64,000 bases of DNA from positions 1 to 64,000 of IMG/VR virus record IMGVR_UViG_3300025617_000009; one strand, 5' to 3'. Origin of the DNA: a virus. A program made the translations under genes and the position numbers. Under the pieces are notes generated by a model. That model did no database searches. It worked only from the letters and a program-made list of their open reading frames with translations, and was not told the origin of the DNA. The number at the start of each line of letters is the position of its first letter. Within the stretch, counting starts at the first letter, position 1. Shown here piece after piece: positions 9,059-26,343 of the stretch.

Positions 9059-10486
9059 TTAATCAGTATCTAGATTGTTTAAAAACTGCTTGAGTTTGGT
9101 AGAACTTGCTTCTGCTTGTATCTTAGGCGCAGCTTTGCCTTCATCTGGAGTGTCACTAGATTGTATTGGTTTAGAACCTCCACGTTTGAGTGCATCTACA
9201 ATACTGTTGCTTCCGCTACTGCTAGTTGCTGTTGCCGGTGCATCTTCGTCTTCGCCTAGATCAAATATACGCAGTGTGTCTACATCAAAGCCTAGATCAA
9301 TCTTAGCACCTACGCCACTTGAACTACGTGTTTTCATCAACTGGATTTGATAGCGTCCACGTTCACGCATAGCACGACTTGTAAAGATACCAATCAAGTT
9401 ATCTGCTGTATTAATCTTAGATATACCGCCCGAGATGTGCGAATGATCAAATTCAATCTCTTCTACACTTGATCTGTTCAACTGACTTGCTGTAACAAAG
9501 ATACAGTTAAGTTCCATTGCCAAGTTACGTAGTTCTTCTGACACATACTTGTCTTTGACAAACAAGTTCTCTGCAGATATCTTTTGTCCAAGCGGGTGCA
9601 TAAGATCCAAGTAATCAATTAATAATACGTCTACTTTACGTCCTGTTTTAATTTCATATTCTTTTAGATAAGCTCTAACGTCATTAGCATTCTTGCCTGT
9701 AGGCATATATTTGACCTGGAAAGCACCTGACTTTTTACCGATCATGCGTACTTTCATTTCAACATCGTCGATGGTTTTAAAGATGTCTCTGCTAGGTATG
9801 TCTGTGGTCATCGAATCAAGGCGCATACTAACTAGATTTTCACTTAGCTCAAATGTCAAGTATAATACATTCTTACCTTGTAAACACCAGTTCACACCCA
9901 TGTTTGCCATAAACAAACTCTTACCAGAACCTGACCCACCTGCAAAGATATTCAGTTCGCCTCTGTTGAATCCGCCAAATAACTTACGATCTAAAGCAGG
10001 CCACCCTGTGCTCACTTGTCCGTTCTTGTCTTTGATTGCTTCGAGTCGAGCTCTAGGATCAGCAAAATAATCTGTACCTAGATCTTTTTGTAAGCCAATT
10101 TGTACAGCACTCTTAACAAGTTCTTCACAACGTCCATACTCACCTTTCTCTAATAGGTCTGCTGAGTCAAGGATTGCTTTCTCTAGTGCTTTGTGTTTGG
10201 CAAATGTTTCAAAGTCTTGTAGCAACCAGTCATAGTGATTCTCTGCTAGTTGTCCTGGGTCTTTCAAGTCTGTATTTGTAGAAGCATTAACAATTTCAAA
10301 TGTAGGTAATGCGTTATGCTCTTCTACATATGTTTTAATAAACTTAGCTGGTTCTTGTAAACGTCTATCAAATGTGTTAGGATCAAACACACCCTGACAG
10401 CGTACAAAGCTCTCAGCGTCTGTCATAAACATTTCTAGATATACTCGTTGTATGTCGTAACCGTAGTCTGTGTTCTGTCTTGTCAT
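9059..10486 (-). CDS. gp41: Replicative DNA helicase, T4 gp41/DnaB family
   Basis: The 475-residue protein is a RecA-fold hexameric helicase that unwinds DNA 5'-3' at the phage fork and pairs with the gp61 primase encoded just upstream. Walker A is GGSGSGKS at 183-190; Walker B is VDVLLIDYLDL at about 285-295; a DnaB-type H4 segment FVTASQLNRSS follows, and an arginine-rich MRERGRYQIQLMKTR region lies near 380. The N-terminal helical domain covers about 1-150 and the C-terminal tail is Ser/Pro/Ala-rich and probably disordered. Length matches T4 gp41 (475). The start is fixed by a sigma-70 promoter whose -10 lies 6 bases before ATG, inside the 3' end of the carbamoyltransferase gene. No Shine-Dalgarno site is present. 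Confidence 0.96.
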   Translation of the reverse strand: MTRQNTDYGYDIQRVYLEMFMTDAESFVRCQGVFDPNTFDRRLQEPAKFIKTYVEEHNALPTFEIVNASTNTDLKDPGQLAENHYDWLLQDFETFAKHKALEKAILDSADLLEKGEYGRCEELVKSAVQIGLQKDLGTDYFADPRARLEAIKDKNGQVSTGWPALDRKLFGGFNRGELNIFAGGSGSGKSLFMANMGVNWCLQGKNVLYLTFELSENLVSMRLDSMTTDIPSRDIFKTIDDVEMKVRMIGKKSGAFQVKYMPTGKNANDVRAYLKEYEIKTGRKVDVLLIDYLDLMHPLGQKISAENLFVKDKYVSEELRNLAMELNCIFVTASQLNRSSVEEIEFDHSHISGGISKINTADNLIGIFTSRAMRERGRYQIQLMKTRSSSGVGAKIDLGFDVDTLRIFDLGEDEDAPATATSSSGSNSIVDALKRGGSKPIQSSDTPDEGKAAPKIQAEASSTKLKQFLNNLDTD

Positions 10487-11464: not shown

Positions 11465-11583
11465 TTGTAGATAAAAGGATCCCGTTTTTTAAGTTCGTCT
11501 AGTCGTTTTTTAAGTTCACGATGTTCCTTCCATTTTTTATACGGAAGTAGTATAAGTTCTTTAAGTTTTTTCAAATAAACCAT
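11461..11583 (-). CDS. Small basic conserved protein (40 aa)
   Basis: This short frame lies between the primase and carbamoyltransferase genes. It starts MVYLKKLKELILLPYKKW and ends KKRDPFIYK, with 13 Lys, and looks like a single amphipathic, strongly basic helix. It begins 13 bases inside the end of the primase gene and its TGA overlaps the next ATG (ATGA), the same tight coupling as neighbouring genes. I recall small ORFs with a similar DPFIYK ending beside replication genes in marine T4-like phages, which supports it being real. Function unknown; nucleic-acid or protein binding is possible given the charge. Confidence 0.72.
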   Translation of the reverse strand: MVYLKKLKELILLPYKKWKEHRELKKRLDELKKRDPFIYK

Positions 11584-12554
11584 TTCTTTGCTCTCAGTCT
11601 AATTTTAAGTGGAGACTCTTCTGCTGAAGTTACAATACTATGTAAAGTATATAGTCTACCGTACTTATCTACAGCATCTCCTATATCATTAATGTCTTGA
11701 CGCCATTCGGGCATGCTCACTGACCATCCTAGTTCAATAGCTCGCTCTACAAGTTTGCTTCCTGCTTTATCTCTATCAGGAACTACAATAATCTGTTTTC
11801 CTAGTCTATTCAACAACATTGCTTGTTGATCTGATATTTCACTGCCGCCTAGGGCACAACCTTCAATGTGTATAGCATCTACCTGTCCTTCGCAGACAAT
11901 AGCAAATATCTTATTGTAGCCTTGATTATCTAAACCATATACAAAGCCAGGTTGTACTTCTGTGAGATACTTGGGCTTCTTGTCAGGTACTACACTTCGT
12001 CCTGTCCAACCTACTATGTTGCCTTCGTAGTAGAAAGGAATGATAAGTCTATCACGGTAACCTAGACTAGGCGACCAGTAATAGTCAGTGTCATCTACAT
12101 TCAAATGACGACTAGCCATGTACTCTAACACAGCCATTGAGTACTTGTCAAAGTCTGTAATGTCTGTAATCCTAACAGCATCCTCAGGCAGAGGCACAGG
12201 GCGGAATGAAGGTAGTTGGGCTATGCGTGTTTGTGCCTCTACTCCTTCGTTCTCCCTCATCACTTCCAACGCCACCTTATTGACTATGTCGTCAGGCGCT
12301 CCCATCCATTGTAGGAGTTTCCGTAACTTGTGAGAGAGATTACGCCCTGGTTGCCAACTTGCTTTAAAGCCACAGTTAAAGCAGTGGAAACTAACGCCGC
12401 CGTCTGGGTTTGATATGAGTCCGCCACGCTGTCTAGTATCTGCACTTGTACCATTATGGTGACAGCAAGGAGCATTAAAACTAATCCATCCACTAGGAGT
12501 AGTCTTACGCTTGGGCGGTAGATATGTCAGAACTGTGTCAGATACAATACTCAT
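11571..12554 (-). CDS. gp61: DNA primase, T4 gp61 family
   Basis: The 327-residue enzyme makes RNA primers for lagging-strand synthesis with gp41. The N-terminal zinc ribbon is visible as CCHH at 30-33 and CFNC at 58-61. The TOPRIM core has the acidic motif AIVCEGQVDAI (Glu222) and the VVPDRDKAG motif (Asp260, Asp262). Length is close to T4 gp61 (342). The start ATG follows a consensus sigma-70 promoter with its -10 six bases upstream and no Shine-Dalgarno site. It heads a unit with the 40-residue protein and the carbamoyltransferase, and gp41 follows from its own promoter. Confidence 0.95.
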   Translation of the reverse strand: MSIVSDTVLTYLPPKRKTTPSGWISFNAPCCHHNGTSADTRQRGGLISNPDGGVSFHCFNCGFKASWQPGRNLSHKLRKLLQWMGAPDDIVNKVALEVMRENEGVEAQTRIAQLPSFRPVPLPEDAVRITDITDFDKYSMAVLEYMASRHLNVDDTDYYWSPSLGYRDRLIIPFYYEGNIVGWTGRSVVPDKKPKYLTEVQPGFVYGLDNQGYNKIFAIVCEGQVDAIHIEGCALGGSEISDQQAMLLNRLGKQIIVVPDRDKAGSKLVERAIELGWSVSMPEWRQDINDIGDAVDKYGRLYTLHSIVTSAEESPLKIRLRAKKWFI

Positions 12555-12589: not shown

Positions 12590-13366
12590 TTAGTTTCTTA
12601 CAAGAACTTTGGTTATTTTATTTTCAGGATCTGCATTAACACTTACACGTAGATAACTAAACACACCATTGAAGTTAAACATCTTATGTGTTTCTGTAGT
12701 TGTTACTACTTCTGTTTCCACATCAAACCATTTAGTAATACCTGTATCGATTTGATTCTCTAGTGTTCCCTGAATAGTGACTTCGCCGTCGAAGCCGTTA
12801 GTGTACACTAGTGCAGTATGTAGTGCTTCGTTACCGTTTAGTGCAGGTTGTGCTTCTACACTTTCTGATACCCACGTACCTTCAACTTCTTCTGAGAACT
12901 GCGTAATACTGTGTGCAGGTTTAGGCGCAGGCAAACTTTGTCCATCTAAATATATTGTGCCACGATTTTCAAAGTAACTATCGCTGTATGTTAATGTGTT
13001 TCCCGAGCTAGAGTTTAAATGTATGCTATAACTTAGATATTGTTGTTTGAGATTAAGCATGTCATTTTCTGTGATGGTTATTTTACATTTACCACGTGTT
13101 TCTGTAGTTCCTAAATCCAACACATCGCAGTCATGTTGAATAACAAGATTTTGATTCTCATCAAAAATCATAATCACAGGCGTATAGCCTTGAATGTCTA
13201 CAGGCTTTTGATCTGCATTTAAAACTCTATATTCTAATACATTATCGATGCCTTTAAAAATCTTTATCTGTCTTGTATACACTGATCTATACTCCGTGAT
13301 GAATCCTGCTTCATTAGCAATAATGTTGGTTTTATTTTTGACTAAATATCTAGGTGTTAATTGCAT
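12590..13366 (-). CDS. Putative virion structural protein (beta-rich)
   Basis: The 258-residue protein starts MQLTPRYLVKNKTNI. I chose ATG at 13366 over an in-frame TTG at 13393 because a late-promoter motif lies exactly 5 bases before the ATG and the extra residues would include that promoter. The sequence is beta-rich (TRQIKIFKGIDNVLEYRVL; FDGEVTIQGTLENQI) and the C-terminal half looks like a small jelly-roll or sandwich domain. No enzyme motif or signal peptide is seen. Its late promoter, amid early replication genes, argues for a virion part such as a baseplate or fibre accessory. I recall similar proteins in marine T4-like phages but cannot assign a T4 equivalent. Confidence 0.7.
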   Translation of the reverse strand: MQLTPRYLVKNKTNIIANEAGFITEYRSVYTRQIKIFKGIDNVLEYRVLNADQKPVDIQGYTPVIMIFDENQNLVIQHDCDVLDLGTTETRGKCKITITENDMLNLKQQYLSYSIHLNSSSGNTLTYSDSYFENRGTIYLDGQSLPAPKPAHSITQFSEEVEGTWVSESVEAQPALNGNEALHTALVYTNGFDGEVTIQGTLENQIDTGITKWFDVETEVVTTTETHKMFNFNGVFSYLRVSVNADPENKITKVLVRN

Positions 13367-13371
13367 AACAC

Positions 13372-13379
13372 TATTTATC
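13372..13379 (-). promoter_or_regulatory. T4-type late promoter (GATAAATA), 5 bases before ATG
   Basis: Minus-strand GATAAATA, then GTGTT, then ATG at 13366. The normal late start distance places +1 at about the ATG, with no Shine-Dalgarno site. The motif lies in the 17-base gap before the divergent plus-strand gene. Confidence 0.7.
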
Positions 13380-13383
13380 GGAC

Positions 13384-13755
13384 ATGTTAACAAAAGATAT
13401 TAAAGAAAATTTTCCATTTATTAGCGTAGTAACATATGGCGGCAACGAATATGTTGGAATCATCACGAATCAAGATCAATACGTAACTTGTATGTACAAC
13501 TATGCCTTTTTAAAAACTCAAGAAGAAAAGAAACTTTTATTAGATCTTGGAGAAATATGGTGGTGGGAAAGTAATCGTCTGATACCCATTAATATCTTTC
13601 TAAGGCAAGAATTAGAACCATTAGCATATTCTGTGTTAACTATGAATTCTAAAGATGTTGTTGTTAGTATAGGTCCTACAGTCAATTTAAATAACATGAC
13701 GTTAAAAAGAGTAAAAAGAAAATCTGTACAATTAATTAAAAAACCTAAAAATTAA
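13384..13755 (+). CDS. Conserved marine T4-like phage protein of unknown function
   Basis: The 123-residue protein is the only plus-strand gene in the left half. It reads FPFISVVTYGGNEYVGIIT, then LDLGEIWWWESNRLIPINIFL and IGPTVNLNNMTLKRVKRKS. The N-terminal strands resemble an Sm/SH3-like small barrel, followed by a WWWESNRLIP motif and a basic tail. I recall near-identical motifs in cyanophage hypothetical proteins. It starts 17 bases from a divergent late gene and its 3' end overlaps the convergent glycosyltransferase gene by 11 bases. The fold suggests a post-transcriptional or RNA-binding regulator, but that is speculation. No convincing promoter was found upstream. Confidence 0.75.
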   Translation: MLTKDIKENFPFISVVTYGGNEYVGIITNQDQYVTCMYNYAFLKTQEEKKLLLDLGEIWWWESNRLIPINIFLRQELEPLAYSVLTMNSKDVVVSIGPTVNLNNMTLKRVKRKSVQLIKKPKN

Positions 13756-14470
13756 ATCTTCCACTTCTTTTATTAATATTATTTTTTGTAAACTTCTTAT
13801 CGCCGGCAGCATGTGTTAATATGCCTTTGACATGCTTGCTTTGGAAATACCCTCTACCTTTAACGTCCTTGTTTAAATCATTACACATCATATGTGTGCA
13901 ACATTCGGGCCATATATGTCCGTCCCAAGTTTTAGGTTTGTTCCATACTTCTCCGCTATCGTAGATACTTAACATGTTATCTACCAGTTGCTGTCTTTGT
14001 TCAGATGTGCCTGCTATAACAAATAATCCTGTTTCCCAATGAGTCATTCTATTTTGTATTTCTACGTGAACTGCTAGATCATATCCTGCAAGTAATAATT
14101 TGTCAATGTCTTTTTGTATAGGCTTGTGTGTTTGTGTGTCGGCATCTAGCCATATTACAGGTTCGTCCGTTTTTAATATTAGATCACAGATAGCATATAC
14201 CTTATGACTCCATCGCAAACCTTTTAGATATTTGTTTTTAGTTTTTTTATTTTGTTCAAGATTTATTAAAGACTCAGTTTTATTTTTAAACAACAAAAAA
14301 TTTTCTTGTTTGTCTAAATCAATGTTAATTATGCGGGCGTGATCTACTGGACAATCTTGATGATACACATATAGAGTACTGTCTTCAGGCCAGCACCGCG
14401 TCCAAGATTCTATAAACTTGTTAGCATAAACGTTCCAATGATCTTTGTGAAAACTGGTTATACATATCAT
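13745..14470 (-). CDS. Putative GT-A glycosyltransferase
   Basis: The 241-residue protein begins MICITSFHKDHWNVYANKF and has the metal-binding DXD-type motif VIWLDADTQTHK near 106-117, preceded by LRWSHKVYAICD. This arrangement (KW/RWSHKVY, then a WxDAD motif, then a GLF/GFY segment) is shared with the protein encoded at 22408-23223, so they are paralogues. It should transfer a sugar from a nucleotide donor; donor and acceptor are unknown. It overlaps the preceding gene by four bases (ATGA) and is the last gene of the 16161-13745 unit, about 6 kb from the main sugar cassette. No signal peptide or membrane segment, so cytosolic. Confidence 0.8.
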   Translation of the reverse strand: MICITSFHKDHWNVYANKFIESWTRCWPEDSTLYVYHQDCPVDHARIINIDLDKQENFLLFKNKTESLINLEQNKKTKNKYLKGLRWSHKVYAICDLILKTDEPVIWLDADTQTHKPIQKDIDKLLLAGYDLAVHVEIQNRMTHWETGLFVIAGTSEQRQQLVDNMLSIYDSGEVWNKPKTWDGHIWPECCTHMMCNDLNKDVKGRGYFQSKHVKGILTHAAGDKKFTKNNINKRSGRFNF

Positions 14471-15033
14471 TGTAGCTCCTCACATAGTAAGTTCATATGC
14501 ACTACACAAGCCATTGCGTAAGACACAGCATGAGCTTTCTTGAAGTAGTATTCACCGTCCTCTGGTTTAATCCACACTTCCTTTCGTATAGTCGTCCACG
14601 GTTCGTTCATGAGGTGTCTTTTTGCCGGACGGATTATAGCGAGGACTGCTGCCAGATCCTCTACGCTTCGTGGCTTCAAACTGCGCAAGACGTCTCCGTG
14701 CCCCGAGAGATGAAATACGTTGTTTACGAAGTCGTCGTGTTCTAGAAGTTCCCATAATGGCTCCTTGTTCATCAACGCTAAGAGATGTTCTTCATCTCTT
14801 ATATCTTTATATATGCTAACATTGAGAAAGTCTAATTTAAAGTATCCGCGCTCTTCTGCACTTTTATAATCTATTGTACTTAAATTATCAACAGGGTTAT
14901 GTGGAATTTCTGTAACGTACACACCAGTGTTGTGTTTCTTTTCTGTGTCAAGTTTTGCAACACGATGATTTATTTTAGATAAAATTAAATCCCTGTCAGG
15001 GAAATCTATATCAATATCTGGAAGATCTATCAC
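14467..15033 (-). CDS. Miniature DNA polymerase III alpha-like (C-family palm) protein
   Basis: The 188-residue protein resembles short pieces of bacterial DnaE joined together. LPDIDIDFPDRDLIL at 4-18 matches the PDFDVDF palm motif with two catalytic aspartates (Asp6, Asp8). YFKLDFLNVS near 64-73 matches the strand carrying the third aspartate (Asp68). HLSGHGDVLRSLKPRSVEDLA and then IRPAKRHLM match the DnaE finger segment LKP...FEDL...YRPGP, and FKKAHAVSYAMACV matches the FNKSHAAAYA motif. PHP, beta-binding and most finger parts are missing; full DnaE is about 1100 residues. T4-like phages normally replicate with a family-B enzyme, so the role is unclear: primer-level synthesis, repair or a non-catalytic part. 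It overlaps genes on both sides by four bases. Confidence 0.8.
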   Translation of the reverse strand: MIDLPDIDIDFPDRDLILSKINHRVAKLDTEKKHNTGVYVTEIPHNPVDNLSTIDYKSAEERGYFKLDFLNVSIYKDIRDEEHLLALMNKEPLWELLEHDDFVNNVFHLSGHGDVLRSLKPRSVEDLAAVLAIIRPAKRHLMNEPWTTIRKEVWIKPEDGEYYFKKAHAVSYAMACVVHMNLLCEELQ

Positions 15034-15725
15034 AGATTGGATTCCTTGGAAATATCTTTTACCAGTTGTACATCACTTGGACTTCGTTTAAAACGCAGTG
15101 CCCAATGTTCCGGGTTAATAACATGATAAACCATTTCTAGTTGTTCGTCATTAAATTTACTTAGCATTTCTTTTCCGCTTTTACAATTTAAAATAAGCCA
15201 CGGAGATATTTTGCCATCCTTGATATGCCATACTGCTCTGTTGAGACTTACATGCTGGAAATAATGATTCCACGGTGCAGGTTCGTTTTCTTCTGCCCAC
15301 TCCATCATTGTCTTTACACTTCTTTCTAATGCTGTTGTTACATCTTCTTTGAGAATAAATTCTAGTACATATTTTTCATATAAACTATCTTTTGCCCAGT
15401 GATCTAGTTTAACGCCACTAGTAACAACATAGTCTATGTATTTTTCTGGATACAACGGTTGCACATTATTAAGAAAACTACCAAACTTAACAAAAGCGTT
15501 GTAATACTGACTGTCAACAAAGTCAGCATAACTTTTTTCTTTCTTTGCTCCTGCGCTGAGAATATAGAATCTCTGGAAGGCGTATAAGCCGTATCTTACT
15601 CGCTTTTCATCTTTTTGTAGCCATCGTCTCTTTTTTTCACACATATGTGCCGCAAGAGTTTTTTCTCTTACATAACTTGTGCCGCAATATTCGCACTTGT
15701 ATTTTTTATCAGAGTTTGACGTCAA
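15030..15725 (-). CDS. N-terminal zinc-finger protein, conserved in marine T4-like phages
   Basis: A zinc-binding motif opens the protein: CEYC, then TLAAHMCEKKRRW, a CxxC...HxC arrangement reminiscent of C2H2 fingers. The rest (AFQRFYILS, FGSFLNNVQPLYPEKYIDYV) is helical and matches what I recall of a conserved cyanophage family. No ATG lies near the finger; I picked TTG at 15725, giving a finger at residues 11-29 and a 17-base overlap with the upstream gene. A TTG at 15779 would add 18 residues. Its stop overlaps the mini-DnaE start (ATGA), and that coupling suggests that the two work together at DNA. Function unproven. Confidence 0.75.
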   Translation of the reverse strand: MTSNSDKKYKCEYCGTSYVREKTLAAHMCEKKRRWLQKDEKRVRYGLYAFQRFYILSAGAKKEKSYADFVDSQYYNAFVKFGSFLNNVQPLYPEKYIDYVVTSGVKLDHWAKDSLYEKYVLEFILKEDVTTALERSVKTMMEWAEENEPAPWNHYFQHVSLNRAVWHIKDGKISPWLILNCKSGKEMLSKFNDEQLEMVYHVINPEHWALRFKRSPSDVQLVKDISKESNL

Positions 15726-16161
15726 TGTTATGTTCTTCAGCCAGTTGCTTGAGTTCTTTTTTTGTATATAGTCCAGCAAGTAGCTCTACCTCTTTCTGTT
15801 TCATGTTAGGATGGATTTGTTCTAGTAGTTTTACTGCTTTGTTATTGTCAGCAGTTGCTTTCTTTTTGAAGCCTTGCCAAGGATGATATTCTATCTTACC
15901 TGTAGCACCACTCATACAAAGCAGTTGCCATTGTAATTGAGGATGCTTGCTTACTTCCATGTAGTTTTTATTAAAGTATTCATTGGTTTTAAACACAGCA
16001 AGTTCTTGTGCTTCTCTGTTGCCGCTGACATTACTAACATATCTATTCAGCAACCAAAAACTTACTTGTTTCTTTTCTTCGTCGCTTAGTTCCTTCCAAA
16101 CAGATTTTGCACCCATGTCTATTGCCGCTAGTATGTCTTTGATTGGAAGTTTATTTGCCAT
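15709..16161 (-). CDS. Conserved phage protein, possible divergent clamp-loader small subunit (gp62-like)
   Basis: The 150-residue protein is all-helical (IKDILAAIDMGAKSVW; VSFWLLNRYVSNVSG; KHPQLQWQLLCMSGATGK; TKKELKQLAEEHNIDV). The order of a helical N-part, a W-rich middle and a C-terminal KELKQLAEEH helix is like the small clamp-loader subunit gp62 in size and position near replication genes, but I see no diagnostic motif and gp44 is not in the window. It is translated from ATG at 16161, overlaps the gene before it by 11 bases and the zinc-finger gene after it. Treat the gp62 suggestion as weak. Confidence 0.7.
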   Translation of the reverse strand: MANKLPIKDILAAIDMGAKSVWKELSDEEKKQVSFWLLNRYVSNVSGNREAQELAVFKTNEYFNKNYMEVSKHPQLQWQLLCMSGATGKIEYHPWQGFKKKATADNNKAVKLLEQIHPNMKQKEVELLAGLYTKKELKQLAEEHNIDVKL

Positions 16162-16537: not shown

Positions 16538-16784
16538 CTTTTATAATATAGTATAGTTCGACAGTTTTGTCAAGTTGCTTTTTAAGAGTAGGATGTTGCT
16601 CTGCTAGATCACATAACTTTTCCCATTCTCCCCAATGTAGTAGTTTGCCTTGGGCTCTTGCTACACCTCTAGGATCCCCGCCTATTATCCAGCGGGGTAT
16701 CTCTGGTTTGTCTCGATAACGAGCGTAGACAACACCGTCATGACGCTCATATATCAACGGCTCGCCTGGAAGCAGTTTAGCCAT
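16527..16784 (-). CDS. Small conserved phage protein of unknown function
   Basis: The 85-residue protein starts MAKLLPGEPLIYERHDGVV. I prefer ATG at 16784 over an upstream start at 16799 because the downstream one gives the natural N-terminus and an 8-base overlap with the transporter gene. It has a compact YARYRDKPEIPRWIIGGDP region and helices after it; IGGDPRGVARAQG is striking but matches no nucleotide-binding motif I know. It is translationally coupled to genes on both sides. Function unknown. Confidence 0.7.
   Translation of the reverse strand: MAKLLPGEPLIYERHDGVVYARYRDKPEIPRWIIGGDPRGVARAQGKLLHWGEWEKLCDLAEQHPTLKKQLDKTVELYYIIKDGK
16545..16573 (-). promoter_or_regulatory. Sigma-70-like early promoter of the DUF2452 gene
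   Basis: Minus strand TTGACA (16573-16568), 17-base spacer, TATATT (16550-16545), 7 bases, ATG at 16537. It lies inside the 3' end of the preceding gene. Confidence 0.68.
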
Positions 16785-17583
16785 TATTAATAGCAGCAAT
16801 AATGTCTGCTTTCTTCATGCTAGCATTAACTTTAATGCCTTTTGATTTAGCATGAGCTAACAAATCATTTTTTGACATGCTATCTAAGTCTGCAGATTTG
16901 GTTGCTTGCTTAGTTGCTTTAGTCGATGTCTTAACAGGAGCTCGTGCCTCTTTAATGGACACAGGTGCTTCTGACGCTGATATAGCATCTTCGCCTAGGC
17001 GTCCTGCAATAGTACGTAACAAAATACCATACATAGGCAGGAAGATAACAAGACCTACAATAATTTTTAATACAGTCTGTGATCCTGCAATCTCAAACCA
17101 ATGCTCCGCCATATACGGATCTGCTGAGTTATTAAATGCAACAGCAAAGAACGTGTAACTATCAATGATGTTTGCTACAATAGTTGACAGTGCAGGCGCC
17201 GCCCACCATGCTTTGTAGTTTTCACGAATCCATTGGAACACATACACGTCAAGGAATGTACCTACTGCGTATGCTGTTGCACTTGCAAAGCCAATACGTA
17301 GTGCTACACTTTCAGGTGCACCTTCTGCTAATACTACAGCAATACTGCCAATAATAGCAAACGGATATGCGGCGGCAATAGTTGCTCGTGCAATACCTTT
17401 ACCTAGTAAGCGAACTGTTAAGTCAGTTGCAATAATAACAAGCGGGAATGTAAACGCCGCCCAAGTTAGTTTAACGCCAAAAAACTCAACTGGAATGTTG
17501 ACTAATGCGTTCGATACTGTGATAACAACTACATGAAGTAGTGCTAGTTTTAGCATCATTACTTTATCTATGTCTTTAAACAT
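16777..17583 (-). CDS. yhhQ: Queuosine-precursor transporter (VUT/YhhQ family) with C-terminal HeH/SAP-like domain
   Basis: The 268-residue protein has about six membrane helices in residues 10-200 (LALLHVVVITVSNALV; FTFPLVIIATDLTVRLLGKG; TAYAVGTFLDVYVFQW; VLKIIVGLVIFLPMYGILL). The FTFPLVIIATDLTVR and FLDVYVFQWIRE segments are typical of YhhQ, the uptake protein for preQ0/preQ1 in bacteria. After a Lys/Thr linker, residues of about 232-268 (MSKNDLLAHAKSKGIKV, then KKADIIAAI) resemble a HeH/SAP/Rho-N fold, a nucleic-acid-binding type not normally fused to this transporter. An AAGGAG site precedes the ATG. Importing 7-deazaguanine precursors could feed DNA or tRNA modification, but no other pathway gene is in the window. 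Confidence 0.88.
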   Translation of the reverse strand: MFKDIDKVMMLKLALLHVVVITVSNALVNIPVEFFGVKLTWAAFTFPLVIIATDLTVRLLGKGIARATIAAAYPFAIIGSIAVVLAEGAPESVALRIGFASATAYAVGTFLDVYVFQWIRENYKAWWAAPALSTIVANIIDSYTFFAVAFNNSADPYMAEHWFEIAGSQTVLKIIVGLVIFLPMYGILLRTIAGRLGEDAISASEAPVSIKEARAPVKTSTKATKQATKSADLDSMSKNDLLAHAKSKGIKVNASMKKADIIAAINNG

Positions 17584-17594
17584 ATTTTCTCCTT

Positions 17595-18101
17595 TTACAT
17601 AAGTTGTGAATAATCAATTAATTCGCTCTGTCTAGAAATTTCCTTAACAAACATAGCACACATAGGTTTCTTTCCTGTAGTTATTGGAATGCATAATAAC
17701 TGTCCATTTCTTACTTTAGGAAAGTACCATTTTACATCGCTGTAAAAATTAGTTATTTTAATCTCGCCAAACTCGTGTTTAAAACTGGATAAAGGATTAA
17801 ACAAAAATGCATCAAACCCTCTATCATTTAAACTTGTCAACGGAAGAACTTCTAAATCATTTCCACTTTCACTATCCCCTACTGCAATGTGCCAGTCTAG
17901 AGGCATGGTTACTTCTTGTCCGGCAATTTCTAACACCATTGCAGGAGAACTAAATGACTCTAAAAAGATCAAAGGAGGAAAAAAGAAATCTGGATCTTTT
18001 GGATCTGAATTATCTAAAACAGCAAACCTTACATCATCTTCTAGTTGTTCTGGTAAATTGTTTAAGAAAAAACATTCATTGTCTAGTGTTAATATTCTCA
18101 T
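17595..18101 (-). CDS. Conserved uvsW-adjacent protein of unknown function
   Basis: The 168-residue protein reads MRILTLDNECFFLNNLPEQL, later DNSDPKDPDFFFPPLIFLESF, MPLDWHIAVGDS, LPLTSLNDRGFDAFLFNPLSSF and VKWYFPKVRNGQLLCIPI. I recognise these segments as a protein that follows uvsW in many marine T4-like phages, with no known role. It starts one base after the uvsW stop and is surely co-translated. The compact mixed alpha/beta sequence has no catalytic signature or signal peptide. Location suggests a part in recombination or late replication control, by association only. Confidence 0.82.
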   Translation of the reverse strand: MRILTLDNECFFLNNLPEQLEDDVRFAVLDNSDPKDPDFFFPPLIFLESFSSPAMVLEIAGQEVTMPLDWHIAVGDSESGNDLEVLPLTSLNDRGFDAFLFNPLSSFKHEFGEIKITNFYSDVKWYFPKVRNGQLLCIPITTGKKPMCAMFVKEISRQSELIDYSQLM

Positions 18102-18102
18102 T

Positions 18103-19566
18103 TTAATTCCAATCTATTTTTTCTATTGTAAAAGGATATTGTGCATCCTTGTAAAACTTCTTACGTTGTGTAAGATGTCGCTTTGCAAATTTACAGCTAC
18201 TTGTAATATCCCATATCTGTACAAAGTCTTTGTCTTTTGCCTTTCTTACGCCTCTGCCTATACTTTGAATTACCCTAACAAAACTTTTCCCAGGCTCAAT
18301 AAGCACGAGATTAAAAATACGAGGAATATTAATGCCAACGGCGGCAACACCATATGTTGCAATAACCACATGATTGTCTGCTTGATTAATTTCATCATAT
18401 GCTTCTTTTCTGTCTTTAAGTTTAACATCACCTTTGACAAACACTGAACCTTCAATGCGTTCTTGTAACATTTCACCTGCACTAATCCTGTCTACAAGAA
18501 TAAGTGTGTTACCTTCTTGTCTTACATTGTTGAGCAGTTTTGCAATATAGTCAATCCTGTCTGTGTTTGTTACTAGGTATTTTAATTCTGATTGATAATC
18601 TCTATGTGCTACAGTATCTATAAGCTGACAAATGTTTACATGGCAGTTGGATAATACACCTTTATCTTGTAGTTCTTTTGCTGTGATCTGTCCAATAACA
18701 GGACCAAGACTTGCGTGGATACTTTCAAACTCAAACGATTCTTTAGGCACTGTGCCTGTTAGTCCCCAACGGATAGGTGCATTGCGTAGGTTGCGTGTAA
18801 GCAAGTTCTTGAGAACTTCTGCTTTAGCTTGGTGTACTTCGTCGACAATAATAGTGCTTACACCGTCTAAGAACTCTGCGAGGCTTAGTACTGCACTGCC
18901 GTCTTTGAACTTCTTGTCTAGAATGTTCAAGCTCTGCCATGTACAGATAGTGTGAGTCTTACCTAACTCTTTCCTGTCTCCGAAGTACACCCCTACATCC
19001 AAGCCGCAGTTGCGATAGTCTTCTTCTGTTTGTGTAACAAGTGATTTGTTAGGCACAATAACTAGACTACGTCCATACGGCTCACTAATATGTGACAAGG
19101 TTGCTGTGGTAATTGTTTTGCCTGCACCTGTTGCAATCTCTTGCAGGCTCTGTGGGTTTTGTAGAAAGTTGTTTATTGCTTCAACTTGATAGTCACGTAG
19201 GATAATGTCTTCGCCTTCCGCTGGATGTCCTTTAGGCCATTTAACACCTTGATCCTTCCAATAGTTTTCTGTGATCGTTTCAAAATTTAAATCTACAGGA
19301 TGCCGTCTATCTTCAATGTCTACAATTTCAACATTATTTTTTTGTAGTACTTCTACAATTTTGTCTAAATGATTAACATAGCCTGTGCCACCTATTCCAA
19401 AGAATGCAACTTTACCATCCCAACGCCCAAGTTTATACTGAGGCATATATCGTGCATAAGGTACTTCAAACTTCAGCGCAGAACTGAGCTTTCTCCTTAT
19501 GTCTACATCGAGTCCTTCGAGTTTGATGTTTACTTCATCTTCAATGATAAGTTTACAAGTTGCCAT
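18103..19566 (-). CDS. uvsW: UvsW-type recombination DNA helicase
   Basis: The 487-residue superfamily-2 helicase matches T4 UvsW (503) in length and order. After a UvsW-type N-terminal domain (about 1-110, LKFEVPYARYMPQYKLGRWDG) come the Q-like RDYQVEAI, Walker A EIATGAGKTITT at 143-154, the DEVH box in IIVDEVHQAK near 237, RWGLTGTVP, and C-terminal motifs VIATYGVAAVGINIPRI and VRVIQSIGRGVRKAKD. UvsW unwinds branched DNA and R-loops and shifts T4 from origin-based to recombination-based replication. The ATG overlaps the TAA of the 410-residue gene, and the early promoter at 20805-20832 should serve both. Confidence 0.96.
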   Translation of the reverse strand: MATCKLIIEDEVNIKLEGLDVDIRRKLSSALKFEVPYARYMPQYKLGRWDGKVAFFGIGGTGYVNHLDKIVEVLQKNNVEIVDIEDRRHPVDLNFETITENYWKDQGVKWPKGHPAEGEDIILRDYQVEAINNFLQNPQSLQEIATGAGKTITTATLSHISEPYGRSLVIVPNKSLVTQTEEDYRNCGLDVGVYFGDRKELGKTHTICTWQSLNILDKKFKDGSAVLSLAEFLDGVSTIIVDEVHQAKAEVLKNLLTRNLRNAPIRWGLTGTVPKESFEFESIHASLGPVIGQITAKELQDKGVLSNCHVNICQLIDTVAHRDYQSELKYLVTNTDRIDYIAKLLNNVRQEGNTLILVDRISAGEMLQERIEGSVFVKGDVKLKDRKEAYDEINQADNHVVIATYGVAAVGINIPRIFNLVLIEPGKSFVRVIQSIGRGVRKAKDKDFVQIWDITSSCKFAKRHLTQRKKFYKDAQYPFTIEKIDWN

Positions 19567-21660: not shown

Positions 21661-22411
21661 CTTCTATATCTTTATTTAAATCATATAGCTCTTCTAAATC
21701 TTTAGGATTTATTCTGTCTTTTAACCCAGCTTTTAAATGTGTAAGATAAGGTGCTAGTACACTCTTGCCTATAGGCGTTTTATATTTGTATGCTTCTGGA
21801 CTTAGTTCACACATTTTTGCACCTTGTTGTTCTAATCTTTTTACAGTAAGACCATAAACTTCTCCGTCGTAGAATCTACGTAATAAAGTAACATCGTCGT
21901 GTGTATATATGTACTTGTATGTTTCATAAAAGTCTTTAAACATTGGATGCTTGCAGTTTAACATTGTAAATCCTGTTTCACAACTAAAATAAGTTTTATC
22001 GTCTTGAGTATGTTGCACACCAAAATGAGCACTTAATGTATCGTCCGGACACATCCATGCAAATAGCTGTTCAGGAATAGTAGCAGTAAGTATTAAATCT
22101 GCATCTAACCAAATTAGTCTATCAACGTCTGATTCTAAACATTCTTCCATTGCAGCAATCAAAGAAAACCCTTTTTTACTAAATGTTACAACTTTAGAGT
22201 TACTTTTCCATCTTTCGACGAACTCTAAATAATCGTCTCCAAGATTCCATCCTTTAGACACTACTCCTTTTACTTTAGAACTAAAATGATCTTCGTTATA
22301 CAAGTCAATATTATAAAATTTTCCTTGTGTTTTTTTAAAACTTTTTAACATAGCCTTGCCGCAATGATTATAGTATTTCCAGCTCATGCTGGTTACAAAC
22401 TTAATGTTCAT
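21650..22411 (-). CDS. Putative GT-A glycosyltransferase
   Basis: The 253-residue protein starts MNIKFVTSMSWKYYNHCGK. The ATG at 22411 overlaps the upstream TGA (ATGA), which fixes the start over a TTG four codons earlier. A DXD motif is seen in RLIWLDADLILTATIP near 94-109, followed by HFGVQHTQDDKTYFSCETGF, a layout shared with the genes at 22408 and 13745. The C-terminus is helical and acidic. It should use a nucleotide sugar in a metal-dependent way. Overlap with the next gene is 11 bases. Acceptor unknown; surface glycan assembly is inferred from its neighbours. Confidence 0.78.
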   Translation of the reverse strand: MNIKFVTSMSWKYYNHCGKAMLKSFKKTQGKFYNIDLYNEDHFSSKVKGVVSKGWNLGDDYLEFVERWKSNSKVVTFSKKGFSLIAAMEECLESDVDRLIWLDADLILTATIPEQLFAWMCPDDTLSAHFGVQHTQDDKTYFSCETGFTMLNCKHPMFKDFYETYKYIYTHDDVTLLRRFYDGEVYGLTVKRLEQQGAKMCELSPEAYKYKTPIGKSVLAPYLTHLKAGLKDRINPKDLEELYDLNKDIEDEV

Positions 22412-23223
22412 AGATTTTTCCAATATGATTCTGTTCTAGGCTTTATCAAATCTTGCCGTTTACTTTTACCCAAGTCTTTTCTTCCGCCTTTAAGGTGATC
22501 TAGATAAGCACCCCACACACTGTTAATCAAGGGATGTCCTTCTCCTTTGATTAATCCCCTGCCCCAGTCTATACACTTTAAAGGCAAGCTCTTTCTTACT
22601 TCTTCAAATACATAACTGTCATGCCATTCTTCCATTTTAAATATTCCGTTTTCGGCATCGTCATATACTCGTTGAAACTCTTGTAAAAACTTTTGTCCTA
22701 GTAATGATTTTAAGTTAACACTATAAAATCCACATTCAGGCCATTTGCGTTCTCTGCCAATATATCCTAGATCCATGTCGTTAGGAATAAGGTTATTGAG
22801 TTTTTCTATGGTTATATGACTATGGCAAAACATATCAGCGTCCATCCAAATAAGAACATCGGCATCTGTATTTTTAGCAGCGTGAAAAATAGAATATACT
22901 TTGTGGCTAAATCTAACAGCGTCCCATTTAAAGTCTTTCCAACTATCCCTGCGTTTTGCAAGATGAGGTACAGAGCTTACATCGCCATTTGCTTTAGGTA
23001 CACTCTTCCACTGTGTTTTAAATGCAACCAAGTCTGGCACACTAGTATGGCTATCAAAAAGTTCTATTCTATTATGATCTCTGATTATAGGATTACAGTC
23101 TTCTGCATATACATATAGTTTAACTTGTTTAGGCCAAGCATCTAAAAAACTATCAATCATACGTTGACCGTATTGTTTTAATCCTTTTTGATTAAATGTT
23201 GTTACAACTATAAATTTTCTCAT
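22408..23223 (-). CDS. Putative GT-A glycosyltransferase
   Basis: The 271-residue protein starts MRKFIVVTTFNQKGLKQYGQ. I chose ATG at 23223, which overlaps the upstream TGA (ATGA), rather than an upstream start. KWDAVRFSHKVYSIFHAAKN is followed by ADVLIWMDADMFCHSH, a DXD motif, and DLGYIGRERKWPECGFYSVN, the same order as in the gene at 13745-14470 (RWSHKVYAICD, WLDADT, HWETGLFVI). That region near the sugar-binding cleft is conserved between them while flanks diverge. Family members transfer a hexose or similar sugar. Part of a fully overlapping ten-gene unit. Confidence 0.8.
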   Translation of the reverse strand: MRKFIVVTTFNQKGLKQYGQRMIDSFLDAWPKQVKLYVYAEDCNPIIRDHNRIELFDSHTSVPDLVAFKTQWKSVPKANGDVSSVPHLAKRRDSWKDFKWDAVRFSHKVYSIFHAAKNTDADVLIWMDADMFCHSHITIEKLNNLIPNDMDLGYIGRERKWPECGFYSVNLKSLLGQKFLQEFQRVYDDAENGIFKMEEWHDSYVFEEVRKSLPLKCIDWGRGLIKGEGHPLINSVWGAYLDHLKGGRKDLGKSKRQDLIKPRTESYWKNL

Positions 23224-24131
23224 AAGTATTCTTTTATTATATTCCAAGCTATGCCTTGTTTTAAATCATCATAGTTAAAGTGACACATTGCAATTTTTTC
23301 CAACCATGCTTGTCTATCAAACACTCTAGGACTCTCTATTAGTGTAAGATCTTTGTTAGCAACATCAAATGCTTGACTTATCCTAGGGTTAGGATCTGTT
23401 ACGAACACTGGTATTCCTTCAATGGCGCTAGCTACACCCGGACTAGAGTTATATGTTATACATGCCCATGCTCCGGATAAATCATGCTGAATCGTTTTTG
23501 CATTACTTATTCTTACTTGAGGATGATTTATTTTTAAGTACTGCTGTGCTCTGCGATCACCAGGGTGGGCTCTAACAACTATAGGACGATCAGATAGTTT
23601 AGTTAGAGTTTTAATAGTAGTATTACACCATTCCATAACATCTAATCCACCCATGCTCCAGCCACCATTACGCTGAAGACAAATCAATATATGCTGTCCT
23701 TGTGTACGCCAAGGTTTTACTTGTATGTTTAAATTTTTTTGTATCTTTGTCCAACGACTAGGATCGACATTGTCTGTAAAATATGTCCCTGTTGTAGGGA
23801 ATACATCATTTAAACTAAAACGAAGGTAATGTTGTTTGTTTGTAGGTTCTACATATAAAAACAAGTTACTGTCTATAGCAAGTGTGTGTTTGCCTATTTC
23901 TCTTTGTTTATCGATAACTTCTTTTCTAAAACGAAGATGAGGAGACTTTTGACTTTGTTGATGCACCCATCCTTGTATTACTGCCAAGTCACTAGGTTCC
24001 CAACGTGCTTGTTCTATTTCTTTGCTTTGTCCTTGAGACACACCTACATGAAAGTTATGAAGTACATCACGTTTTTCTGGTTTAGTATTTTTTGCAGGAA
24101 TACCTGCGTAATATACTCTAACTGTCTTCAT
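23220..24131 (-). CDS. KpsC/KpsS-like capsule-glycan glycosyltransferase paralogue
   Basis: The 303-residue protein shares landmarks with the genes before and after it: VKPWRTQGQHILICLQ, a TLTKLSDRPIVVRAHPGDRR loop, SGAWACITYNSSPGVASAIE, GIPVFVTDP and CHFNYDDLKQGIAW. The RAHPG and SSPGVASAIEGIP motifs resemble the donor-binding half of GT-B capsule transferases (KpsC/KpsS). The N-terminal third is variable among the paralogues, as expected if each sees a different acceptor. It overlaps its neighbours by 4 and 14 bases. No signal peptide. Confidence 0.72.
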   Translation of the reverse strand: MKTVRVYYAGIPAKNTKPEKRDVLHNFHVGVSQGQSKEIEQARWEPSDLAVIQGWVHQQSQKSPHLRFRKEVIDKQREIGKHTLAIDSNLFLYVEPTNKQHYLRFSLNDVFPTTGTYFTDNVDPSRWTKIQKNLNIQVKPWRTQGQHILICLQRNGGWSMGGLDVMEWCNTTIKTLTKLSDRPIVVRAHPGDRRAQQYLKINHPQVRISNAKTIQHDLSGAWACITYNSSPGVASAIEGIPVFVTDPNPRISQAFDVANKDLTLIESPRVFDRQAWLEKIAMCHFNYDDLKQGIAWNIIKEYL

Positions 24132-24891
24132 TTAATATCCTATGTGCTAATCCACTTTTCATTTCATCTACGTGAAACTGTCCATAAGCTAAATGGTGTG
24201 CCCATTTATGTATTTTATCCATATCTTGTACAGTTGGTTGTTCAATTAGACTTAGATTCTTATCACAAACAGGATCAGCCGCTGTAGGTGCTAGTGTAAA
24301 CGCTGGAACGCCATATAGCACACTTTCTACAGCCGCAATACTTTGATATGTTACAAGTGCATGACAATCTTTTAAATCGTCAAATATTGTATTTGTAATA
24401 CGTTGTTGTCTAGATACTTTGTCTCTAATGATAATAGGACGTTCAGTATACTTTTTTATCTCCGCAACAGTTTCTCTAACCCAAGCATTTCTATCTATAC
24501 CATAAAATTTACAAGGTTTTTCGCTTGGCGTAACTAATAATATGTGATTGCCAGTCTTTCTAGATTCTATCGTATACTCTAGTTTACTCCAACGATCGTC
24601 GGGTCTGTCTATTATCTTGTTATGTTGCACATCGTTCTTTACAATACGATGCCACAACTTCCAGCCATGCGGATTAGCAGAAGATTTATAGTTACCTACA
24701 TAACCGCTGTCCATGTAATAAAATGTGTGATTATTATCTAAGCACCATTGTATAAGTTTGCGTTTACCCATGCTACGAATCATTATGGGCTTATTACCAA
24801 AGTCGTAGTCGTAACTTTCTATAGGCAAGCCTGCACCGTGTGCAAACATGTTCACATATTCGTCTGTGAGATTTTTACTCAGGCATATCAT
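24118..24891 (-). CDS. KpsC/KpsS-like capsule-glycan glycosyltransferase paralogue
   Basis: The 257-residue protein starts MICLSKNLTDEYVN at ATG 24891; the longer frame to 24957 would begin with TTG and overlap the upstream gene by 83 bases, so I prefer the shorter form (17-base overlap). It keeps the shared elements TGNHILLVTPSEK, WVRETVAEIKKYTERPIIIR, CHALVTYQSIAAVESVLYG, VPAFTLAP and QFHVDEMKSGLAH, but the RPHP loop of its sisters is IIIRDK, so the His is gone. This may be a diverged donor site or an inactive partner. Family assignment as in the two paralogues. Confidence 0.7.
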   Translation of the reverse strand: MICLSKNLTDEYVNMFAHGAGLPIESYDYDFGNKPIMIRSMGKRKLIQWCLDNNHTFYYMDSGYVGNYKSSANPHGWKLWHRIVKNDVQHNKIIDRPDDRWSKLEYTIESRKTGNHILLVTPSEKPCKFYGIDRNAWVRETVAEIKKYTERPIIIRDKVSRQQRITNTIFDDLKDCHALVTYQSIAAVESVLYGVPAFTLAPTAADPVCDKNLSLIEQPTVQDMDKIHKWAHHLAYGQFHVDEMKSGLAHRILNEDS

Positions 24892-25558
24892 GCTGTTGGC
24901 AATACTCTGTATAGATGCGTTCTCTATGCCATTCGTCGCCCATGGGTGTTGTAGCAAACTCGTGAAAACTAGGAGTACCTAATGTGTAGTGTAGTAGTTT
25001 AGCATCTGGATTAGCGCCGTATTCATCTGGCAACCAGTTCCATTCAGGAGAAAGTTCTCCTATGCGTTCATCCTCAATGTGCTGAAATCTATGTAGTTGA
25101 GCACCTGTGGCATTTTGTACATATTCTGGTGTAAGTCTTTTATTAGGGAAACTAGCACAGTTCCAAAGAATAACAGAACTCCAGTTTTTTCTAGGGTAGT
25201 TTTCGTTTTTACTTCCAAGATACTTTTCAGTCATCTTAGTTTGGTAATCGTGTTTTACAACCATTACATCTTTATCAGTTTCTTTTAAGTTCCACAACTT
25301 ATAGATGTCGTCACGAACAATCATATCGCCATCCATGAAGATTGCCCAACCTGTATAGTTCATTAAATGCGGAACAAGAAAACGACTGTAAATAAAATGG
25401 TTTGATCCGTCTGTGTGTTTTTCTTCGTAGTCTTGTAGTAAGTTTAATGCTAGAGGAATAATCTGTACAGGGCCGCTTGCATGTCTAATAATAGAGTTTG
25501 CACATACGTGAAAGGCTATTGCTTCTCTAGGATCATATCCTATAAAAATTGGAATCAT
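24875..25558 (-). CDS. GT8-like glycosyltransferase
   Basis: The 227-residue protein begins MIPIFIGYDPREAIAFHVCA, as in family-8-type transferases, and carries YTGWAIFMDGDMIVRDDIYKL (DXD near 76-78), with YSRFLVPHLM before it. Near the C-terminus, LLHYTLGTPSFHEF contains a HYT motif of the kind that completes the metal site. It should be a retaining glycosyltransferase; GT8 members typically use UDP-sugars. The start overlaps the stop of the nucleotidyltransferase gene (ATGA). Close relatives occur in marine phages and bacterial polysaccharide clusters. Substrate not deducible. Confidence 0.8.
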   Translation of the reverse strand: MIPIFIGYDPREAIAFHVCANSIIRHASGPVQIIPLALNLLQDYEEKHTDGSNHFIYSRFLVPHLMNYTGWAIFMDGDMIVRDDIYKLWNLKETDKDVMVVKHDYQTKMTEKYLGSKNENYPRKNWSSVILWNCASFPNKRLTPEYVQNATGAQLHRFQHIEDERIGELSPEWNWLPDEYGANPDAKLLHYTLGTPSFHEFATTPMGDEWHRERIYTEYCQQHDMPE

Positions 25559-26325
25559 CGTCTTTCAATATCCTCTTCTACACATACAGTACCCCATTGA
25601 ATTTCAAGAACATGTGCATTTTCTGTTCCTGGATTACTTGCCTGATGCCATACTTCTTTGCCTATTTTATAAGTAAAACTGTCTGATGTTAGATGCACAC
25701 TTTCTTTAATTCTATTATATTCAGTATCCATCTTAACACTGCCTTCGAGTACAGTCCAATCTTCCGAACGTTTAAAATGTCGTTGATCGCTTAGACTTTT
25801 TCCAGGATAGATTACAAGTTCTTTAACTTTATAACCTTTACTAGGTTTATCGTCTAATACTCTCCAATAACCCCAGTCACGTTCTGTCTTTTGTGTTTTC
25901 CACTCGTCTAATATCCACGAGCTAGAATTCTTTTTATTTTCACCACCTATGCCAAACTCGAAACTTAGATTATCTGCTATGACTTTCATTTCAGGAATAT
26001 TTTTGCTAGTTCTGTCGCCACCGTTAGCAAACACAACTTCGTCTTCTTCATAGTTCCAGCACGAATCTTGTACAAACTTAGTACAAGTGTCATCAGCATC
26101 ATAGTCGTCATCAAATGCTACAACAGCGTCTACCATAGATAGTGCTCTAATAACTTCTGCTCTTTCTTCTAAAGGCATAAACGGTCTGCCTTTCTTGCGT
26201 GTAAGCCAAGCATCGCTGTTAATGCCAACTACAAGTCGATCACCTAATGTTTTAGCTTCTTTGAAATATTCTATATGACCTGAATGAAGTGGATCAAATC
26301 CACCTGTAACTAATACTACTCTCAT
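25555..26325 (-). CDS. Nucleotidyltransferase (HldE C-domain/TagD-like) fused to a cupin domain
   Basis: Residues 1 to about 135 are a cytidylyltransferase-like domain with GGFDPLHSGHIEYFKEA (HxGH at 14-17), GDRLVVGINSDAWLTRKKGR and PLEERAEVIRALSMVDAVV, the closest resemblance being the ADP-heptose synthase half of HldE. Residues of about 150-256 form a cupin: WGYWRVLDDKPSKGYKVKEL, then PGKSLSDQRHFKRSEDWTVL and VWHQASNPG, like the C-terminal half of type II mannose-6-phosphate isomerases. The first domain would activate a sugar phosphate with ATP or CTP; the cupin may isomerise the sugar. With hldD and gmhB homologues at 53.5-55.3 kb it fits an ADP-heptose-type route. A late-promoter motif lies 5 bases before ATG. 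Confidence 0.85.
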   Translation of the reverse strand: MRVVLVTGGFDPLHSGHIEYFKEAKTLGDRLVVGINSDAWLTRKKGRPFMPLEERAEVIRALSMVDAVVAFDDDYDADDTCTKFVQDSCWNYEEDEVVFANGGDRTSKNIPEMKVIADNLSFEFGIGGENKKNSSSWILDEWKTQKTERDWGYWRVLDDKPSKGYKVKELVIYPGKSLSDQRHFKRSEDWTVLEGSVKMDTEYNRIKESVHLTSDSFTYKIGKEVWHQASNPGTENAHVLEIQWGTVCVEEDIERR

Positions 26326-26330
26326 GTAGA

Positions 26331-26338
26331 TATTTATA
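26331..26338 (-). promoter_or_regulatory. T4-type late promoter (TATAAATA), 5 bases before ATG
   Basis: Minus-strand TATAAATA is the exact T4 late consensus, then TCTAC, then ATG at 26325. It would start a late transcript through the lower half of the sugar cassette with no leader. Confidence 0.65.
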
Positions 26339-26343
26339 TGCTA

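What the first reader, a model, noticed from the sequence alone, without database searches (positions are those of the whole stretch)
14467..15033. A 188-residue miniature C-family polymerase-like protein with all three palm aspartates
PDIDIDF (Asp6, Asp8) and KLDFL (Asp68) match the catalytic carboxylates of bacterial DnaE, and LKP..VEDL..IRP and KKAHAVSYA match finger motifs, but the protein is about one sixth of normal size. It is tightly coupled to a zinc-finger gene. T4-like phages use a family-B polymerase, so a conserved mini-C-family protein may be a new repair, priming or terminal-transferase enzyme, or a structural decoy of host Pol III.
Basis: partly seen in the sequence, partly recalled or inferred. 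Interest (0 to 1): 0.72.

Follow-up and report, generated by a model that had tools for sequence, protein, structure and literature searches.

The report
Half of a split mini phage polymerase
The gene encodes the metal- and base-pair-binding half of a stripped-down bacterial-type DNA polymerase that large T4-like phages carry as two small proteins from far-apart genes, alongside their normal polymerase; the split enzyme was described from sequence in 2021, but I found no report of it being tested at the bench.

Summary
Window 14467-15033(-) is a 188-aa C-family (DnaE-like) palm/fingers protein. Aspartates 6, 8 and 68 are present in all 28 homologues found without motif selection. AlphaFold2 gives pLDDT 93, and the first 16 Foldseek/PDB hits are all Pol III alpha or PolC. 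It is not a stand-alone polymerase: it starts at PDIDIDF and lacks the upstream GRGS helix of the C-family palm. That helix lies on a second small protein (piece A, about 170-180 aa) encoded 15-324 kb away, which ends just before the point where this protein begins. Both pieces occur in 9/9 sampled named jumbo phages and 16 of 20 large records; the four exceptions may be fragments. Eighteen of those 20, and all nine named phages, also carry a family-B polymerase. Piece A is not in this 115-kb record, but is in its two longest close relatives. Iyer et al. 2021 (PMC7824862) already described this split minimal Pol III alpha, so the window protein is a new member of a known kind. Its gene sits in a conserved UvsW-zinc finger-primase-helicase cluster. 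Most likely the halves form a minimal nucleotidyltransferase that assists the family-B replisome in repair, gap filling or primer extension; that function is inferred, not shown.

The parts
14467..15033 (-). Piece B: C-terminal unit of the split minimal Pol III alpha (188 aa, GTG start)
15001..15021 (-). PDIDIDF, catalytic Asp6 and Asp8 (aligned with M. tuberculosis DnaE1 PDIDIDF, chain 7pu7_A positions 420-426)
14824..14838 (-). KLDFL, Lys66 and third catalytic Asp68 (aligned with KMDFL of M. tuberculosis DnaE1)
14626..14634 (-). IRP: Arg135 and Pro136 align with DnaE1 Arg667 and Pro668, which line the nascent base-pair pocket
14527..14544 (-). FKKAHA: His168 aligns with DnaE1 His787 of the nascent base-pair pocket
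15030..15779 (-). Zinc-finger protein (PHROG 11058; C2H2 or CCHC finger near the N terminus), overlaps the start of piece B by 4 nt; found upstream of piece B in 94/94 viral contigs with room and 9/10 named phages
15709..16161 (-). PHROG 11758 homologue, unknown function, cluster member in 81/94 relatives
17595..18101 (-). PHROG 11279 homologue, unknown function, cluster member in 94/94 relatives
18103..19566 (-). UvsW-type DNA helicase, cluster member in 93/94 relatives
13384..13755 (+). PHROG 11637 homologue on the opposite strand, conserved downstream of piece B in 94/94 relatives
12590..13393 (-). Virion structural protein homologue (PHROG 14467), cluster member in 78/94 relatives
11571..12554 (-). 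DNA primase, cluster member in 94/94 relatives
9059..10486 (-). DnaB-like replicative helicase, cluster member in 93/94 relatives

Best explanation
The ORF is piece B, the C-terminal unit of the split, minimal DNA polymerase III alpha of T4-like jumbo phages. Piece B carries the three metal-binding aspartates and the fingers residues that line the nascent base-pair pocket. A second protein, piece A, encoded far away near the phage clamp-loader gene, carries the GRGS helix that should bind the triphosphate. A ends and B begins at the same linker of the palm, so the two most likely fold together into one composite Pol-beta-type active site of about 360 residues. No part of that core matched the PHP, thumb, beta-binding, OB or tau-binding regions. 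DNA affinity and positioning must then come from partners; the zinc-finger protein encoded immediately upstream is the best candidate. The assembled enzyme probably works beside the phage family-B polymerase on short synthesis such as repair, gap filling or primer extension at recombination forks. Shown: homology, motif conservation, predicted fold of each chain, break point, frequent co-occurrence, synteny, purifying selection. Inferred: physical assembly, catalysis, DNA partner, biological role. Also inferred: that this particular phage encodes piece A.
For: B matches Pol III alpha by sequence and fold. All nine complete or near-complete jumbo-phage genomes tested hold a second small ORF matching PHROG 405 positions about 340-437, which is missing from B. 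A matches Pfam DNA_pol3_alpha positions about 16-95 up to its own last residues and aligns to E. coli DnaE 321-393, ending at FL; B begins at the next motif, PDxDxDF. The break point is uniform: A ends 35-41 residues after the start of GxGRGS, and B has a median of 2 residues before DxD. No fused form was seen among the loci examined. Modelled A chain: pLDDT 91, first 17 PDB fold hits all Pol III alpha or PolC. A and B co-occur in 16/20 large records and family-B polymerase in 18/20; the two A-only records also lack the zinc-finger neighbour, so they may be fragments. A sits near the clamp-loader gene in 50/51 loci; B sits in the UvsW-primase-helicase cluster in at least 93/94. dN/dS about 0.06. 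The two longest records with window-like B (73% identity) carry A. Iyer et al. 2021 reached the same two-protein model.
Against: Piece A was not found in the 115-kb record that holds the window; the record is linear and probably a fragment, but this leaves the pair unproven in this phage. No A-B complex was modelled; only single chains were. Two large records have B without A (280 and 199 kb) and two have A without B (359 and 191 kb). Without thumb and beta-binding domain, DNA binding is unexplained. I found no biochemical or genetic test in the papers searched. Sequence scores of B against solved polymerases are modest (best E=0.0024 single-sequence; 0.0012 with a profile).
Confidence: 0.75

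Rival explanations
1. A and B form a nucleotidyltransferase-fold complex that does something other than templated DNA synthesis: terminal transfer, nucleotide sensing, or allosteric control of the family-B polymerase or primase.
For: Thumb and most of the fingers are missing, so templated synthesis is not guaranteed; B is embedded in the helicase-primase cluster and A sits near the clamp loader, which would suit a replisome regulator.
Against: The residues kept include those that line the template and incoming-base pocket of DnaE1 (R135/P136/H168 = R667/P668/H787), not just the metal site; that argues for a base-pairing polymerase.
Confidence: 0.15
2. Piece B alone is a miniature polymerase, primase or terminal transferase.
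For: All three carboxylates and the fingers pocket residues are present; confident single-chain fold.
Against: B starts a median of 2 residues before DxD, so the GRGS helix of the palm is absent; that helix is encoded by piece A in nearly all large genomes examined.
Confidence: 0.04
3. Decoy or inhibitor that mimics the palm of host Pol III to block or divert the host replisome.
For: It resembles the host enzyme and is phage-encoded.
Against: Catalytic Asp residues in B and the GRGS motif in A are kept across very divergent phages, which a decoy does not need; the loci are replication clusters shared by phages of Escherichia, Pseudomonas, Klebsiella, Xanthomonas, Vibrio and rhizobia.
Confidence: 0.03
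4. A and B are non-catalytic relics kept as structural scaffolds in the phage replisome.
For: Extreme reduction of the polymerase; a family-B polymerase is present in 18/20 large records.
Against: Active-site residues of both chains are among the most conserved positions, with dN/dS about 0.06.
Confidence: 0.05

Closest known systems
[quoted passage not shown] 2021, Viruses 13:63, PMC7824862); PHROG 11778 (this ORF) plus PHROG 11127 (piece A)
   Same: Same protein family, same division into a GRGS/NTP-binding unit and a metal/template-binding unit, genes far apart, family-B polymerase also present.
   Different: The window member comes from an uncultivated virus and is 34-77% identical to the 53 relatives aligned with it; piece A has not been seen in its 115-kb record. 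The zinc-finger coupling, exact break point and neighbourhood counts are added here.
Bacterial C-family replicative polymerases (DnaE1 of M. tuberculosis, E. coli and Thermus; PolC)
   Same: Palm with DxD and KxD, the RPxx helix and the KxHA fingers motif in the same order; fold hits.
   Different: One chain of about 1,100-1,200 residues against two chains totalling about 360; DxD-to-D spacing 60 against 164 residues, R-to-H spacing 33 against 120; no PHP, HhH, OB or tau-binding part matched.
Two-gene full-size phage DnaE of Tenacibaculum phage Larrie (PHROG 13169 plus PHROG 12219)
   Same: Polymerase interrupted at the same linker between FERFLN and PDIDxDF.
   Different: Genes are adjacent; PHP, complete fingers, HhH and a weak OB match are retained; a 50-odd-residue tail and an 18-residue leader flank the break.
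African swine fever virus Pol X (minimal PolX of nucleotidyltransferase fold plus fingers only, as summarised in PMC11646218)
   Same: A viral polymerase cut down to the Pol-beta-type catalytic fold plus fingers; a precedent for how it could work.
   Different: X family, single chain, base-excision repair; analogy only, not a relative by any test here.

Membership tests
C-family DNA polymerase (Pol III alpha) | Three palm carboxylates (DxD ... KxD) | tested here: met
   28/28 homologues found without motif selection; window D6, D8, D68
C-family DNA polymerase (Pol III alpha) | Pol-beta-type palm fold related to DnaE/PolC | tested here: met
   AF2 pLDDT 93.4; first 16 PDB hits are Pol III alpha or PolC, best E=2.5e-4, prob 1.00
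C-family DNA polymerase (Pol III alpha) | GRGS helix upstream of DxD in the same chain | tested here: not met
   Window ORF has five residues before Asp6; GRGS is on the separate piece A in relatives
C-family DNA polymerase (Pol III alpha) | Complete fingers, thumb, PHP, beta-clamp-binding domain | tested here: not met
   Pfam finger match covers 31-80 of 166; no other part matched, nor elsewhere in nine genomes searched with PHROG 405 beyond regions about 340-437 and 558-809 and one weak 27-residue hit
C-family DNA polymerase (Pol III alpha) | Templated 5'-3' DNA synthesis | not testable with these tools
   needs purified A and B
Split minimal Pol III alpha of jumbo phages (Iyer et al. 2021) | C-terminal unit homologous to the known family | tested here: met
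   PHROG 11778 E=1.3e-62 over 6-186; best named hits 56% identical
Split minimal Pol III alpha of jumbo phages (Iyer et al. 2021) | N-terminal unit encoded at a distant locus of the same genome | tested here: inconclusive
   Absent from the 115-kb record, which may be incomplete; present in the 357-kb and 237-kb records of relatives with 73%-identical B and in 9/9 named phages
Split minimal Pol III alpha of jumbo phages (Iyer et al. 2021) | Phage genome also encodes a family-B polymerase | tested here: inconclusive
   None in the 115-kb record; present in those same two relatives, 18/20 large records and 9/9 named phages
Split-intein-mediated trans-spliced polymerase | Intein halves at the junction | tested here: not met
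   A ends at EFLR/EFLK almost always and B starts at M-PDIDIDF; no room for intein sequence at either end

The most novel reading that the evidence does not exclude
A third subunit completes the enzyme: the zinc-finger protein encoded immediately upstream in nearly all relatives replaces the missing thumb and DNA-binding domains, giving a three-protein C-family polymerase dedicated to recombination- or primase-linked synthesis beside a family-B replicase.
Probability: 0.2. Interest if true: 0.75.

Novelty: new member of a known kind. Interest (0 to 1): 0.42.

Why it matters
If the two small proteins reconstitute activity, they would be far smaller than any C-family polymerase with a solved structure seen here, and would show which parts of Pol III are dispensable for catalysis. 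Iyer et al. proposed them as models of the ancestral enzyme. Why phages with a family-B polymerase keep a second, bacterial-type catalytic core under strong selection is an open question that simple biochemistry on two proteins of about 200 residues or fewer could answer. The work here supplies diverse A/B pairs, the exact break point, and a candidate third subunit.

Tried and rejected
Stand-alone mini-polymerase: rejected because the GRGS helix is missing from this chain. Fused single-chain form: regex over all loci fetched by then found none. Split intein: rejected, no intein sequence at either end. Piece A in the window or its 115-kb record: not found by tblastn or profile. Other missing Pol III parts as further small genes: PHROG 405 over nine genomes gave only the A and B regions plus one weak 27-residue hit. 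Epsilon (DnaQ) gene near the cluster in the window: reported for CBB and XacN1, not seen among the window ORFs scanned. The motif invariance of the 169-sequence set was discounted because of motif-based selection and replaced by the 28-sequence set. A phage proteomics paper had no relevant data.

Full report
OBSERVATION. The ORF at 14467-15033(-) is real: 188 aa, GTG start, sharing 4 nt with the end of the zinc-finger ORF 15030-15779. PHROGs assigns it to family 11778 'DNA polymerase' (E=1.3e-62) and, more weakly, to the full-length Pol III alpha family 405 (E=2.9e-10). Pfam gives only the Pol III finger domain, just under its cut-off. A single-sequence search of the PDB finds Pol III alpha chains with three collinear pieces in M. 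tuberculosis DnaE1 (7pu7_A): 418-429 (PDIDIDF), 574-670 (KMDFL to RPGP) and 779-794 (FNKSHA).

CONSERVATION. tblastn against phage genomes found 170 records, with at least 80% query cover in 90. The relatives are jumbo phages of Pseudomonas, Sinorhizobium, Agrobacterium, Klebsiella, Escherichia, Salmonella, Erwinia, Cronobacter, Vibrio, Xanthomonas and Salicola (75 of the records are Streptomyces phages, not examined). Asp6, Asp8 and Asp68 are kept in all ten divergent relatives aligned and in all 28 homologues collected by tblastn or profile rather than by motif. In a larger set of 169 the same residues are invariant, but that set was chosen with a motif pattern, so it adds little. Against an 83%-identical relative, pN is 0.12 and pS 0.71.

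FOLD. AlphaFold2 with a 54-sequence alignment from the window and viral contigs gave pLDDT 93.4, pTM 0.80. In Foldseek against the PDB the first 16 hits are all bacterial Pol III alpha or PolC, best E=2.5e-4, probability 1.00, TM-score normalised to the query 0.35-0.52; unrelated folds start at E=1. The low TM values fit a protein that keeps pieces of palm and fingers at changed spacing. By the alignments, the distance from DxD to the third Asp is 60 residues here against 164 in DnaE1, and from the RP motif to the KxH motif 33 against 120. Residues R135, P136 and H168 align with DnaE1 Arg667, Pro668 and His787, which line the pocket of the nascent base pair in the nargenicin complex (PMC8922275).

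THE OTHER HALF. C-family palms have a GRGS motif upstream of DxD; the window protein starts just before PDIDIDF, so that helix cannot be in it. Searching nine complete or near-complete jumbo-phage genomes with PHROG 405 found, in every one, a second short ORF matching positions about 340-437, which end where the window protein begins. These ORFs (piece A) end in ...G-x-GRGSS...EFLK/EFLR and stop. Pfam DNA_pol3_alpha matches them up to their last residues (positions 16-95 of 260); as a profile they align with E. coli DnaE 321-393. The modelled A chain has pLDDT 91.4, and its first 17 PDB hits are Pol III alpha or PolC, with weaker E-values (best 0.014) than B. In 79 A and 159 B sequences from viral contigs and the window, A ends 35-41 residues after the start of GxGRGS and B has a median of two residues before DxD. 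No fused form was seen in the loci fetched.

PAIRING. All nine named phages have A, B and a family-B polymerase. Of 20 large records, 18 have B, 18 have A, 16 have both, and 18 have family B. The four with only one piece are linear records that may be partial; the two A-only records also lack the zinc-finger neighbour of B, and sensitive profile searches did not recover the missing piece. In 24 genomes with both, the genes are 14.7-324 kb apart by record coordinates. The window's own 115-kb record has B but neither A nor family B. Of the records with closely window-like B that I searched, the two longest (357 and 237 kb, B 73% identical) have A and family B; shorter ones mostly do not have A, as expected of fragments.

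NEIGHBOURHOOD. In 94 viral contigs with enough flank, the order UvsW helicase - PHROG 11279 - PHROG 11758 - zinc finger - piece B - antisense PHROG 11637 - structural protein - primase - DnaB helicase is almost invariant (zinc finger 94/94, primase 94/94, UvsW 93/94, helicase 93/94), and it is recognisable in the named jumbo phages (zinc finger 9/10, primase 9/10). These contigs were gathered by similarity to B, many to the window's B, so they are not an independent sample. Piece A is followed by a GroES-like gene in 51/51 and a clamp-loader gene in 50/51 contigs. Both halves thus sit among replication and recombination genes.

LITERATURE. Iyer et al. [quoted passage not shown] they suggest it cooperates in synthesis of one strand or in repair. 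The CBB genome paper had noted one truncated 172-aa alpha-like protein and a DnaQ-like epsilon (PMC5259590). I reached the two-gene picture from the genome search before finding that paper, so it is an independent confirmation, not a discovery. No experimental test of the pair turned up in the searches run; the library holds only open-licence PMC papers.

MECHANISM. Shown: homology, predicted fold of each chain, kept active-site residues, uniform break point, co-occurrence, synteny, purifying selection. Inferred: that A and B assemble into a composite site with the triphosphate on A and the metals and base-pair pocket on B; that partners supply DNA binding; that the role is short synthesis beside the family-B polymerase. 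The zinc-finger protein is the natural candidate partner because of its 4-nt overlap and conserved position, but nothing here shows that it binds DNA or the polymerase. A viral precedent for a polymerase reduced to the nucleotidyltransferase fold plus fingers is African swine fever virus Pol X (PMC11646218), an analogy only.

SAME BREAK ELSEWHERE. Tenacibaculum phage Larrie has a full-size DnaE (PHP through HhH, weak OB match) in two adjacent genes cut at the same linker (Pfam DNA_pol3_alpha position 98 | 100). This shows that the palm is found divided at this point in a second phage setting; whether by common descent or convergence was not tested.

VERDICT. What remains interesting is that the function is untested and readily testable.

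Noticed in passing
L203:2146-5726: Tenacibaculum phage Larrie encodes full-size DnaE in two adjacent genes broken at the same palm linker as the mini enzyme; the N part has a tail of about 50 residues and the C part a leader of about 18 that could be linker or degenerate intein sequence.
   Followed up: partly
13384-13755 (+): A small gene (PHROG 11637) on the strand opposite to the replication cluster is kept downstream of piece B in 94/94 relatives; function unknown.
   Followed up: partly
16777-17583: A vitamin-uptake-transporter-like protein (Vut_1) with a C-terminal Rho_N-like stretch lies inside the replication cluster of this phage; similar genes were seen in only 12/94 relatives.
   Followed up: no
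13745-14470: An ORF of 241 aa without PHROG hit separates piece B from the conserved antisense gene in the window but was not found at that place in most relatives.
   Followed up: no
22408-28829: Several ORFs match glycan-modifying families (glycosyltransferases 2 and 8, pyruvyl transferase, GXM-like and other methyltransferases, heptose adenylyltransferase-like).
   Followed up: no
NC_042013.1 212336-213688: In Agrobacterium phage Atu_ph07 the family-B polymerase matches fall in two separate open frames (418 and 578 aa), so that polymerase may be split too.
   Followed up: no
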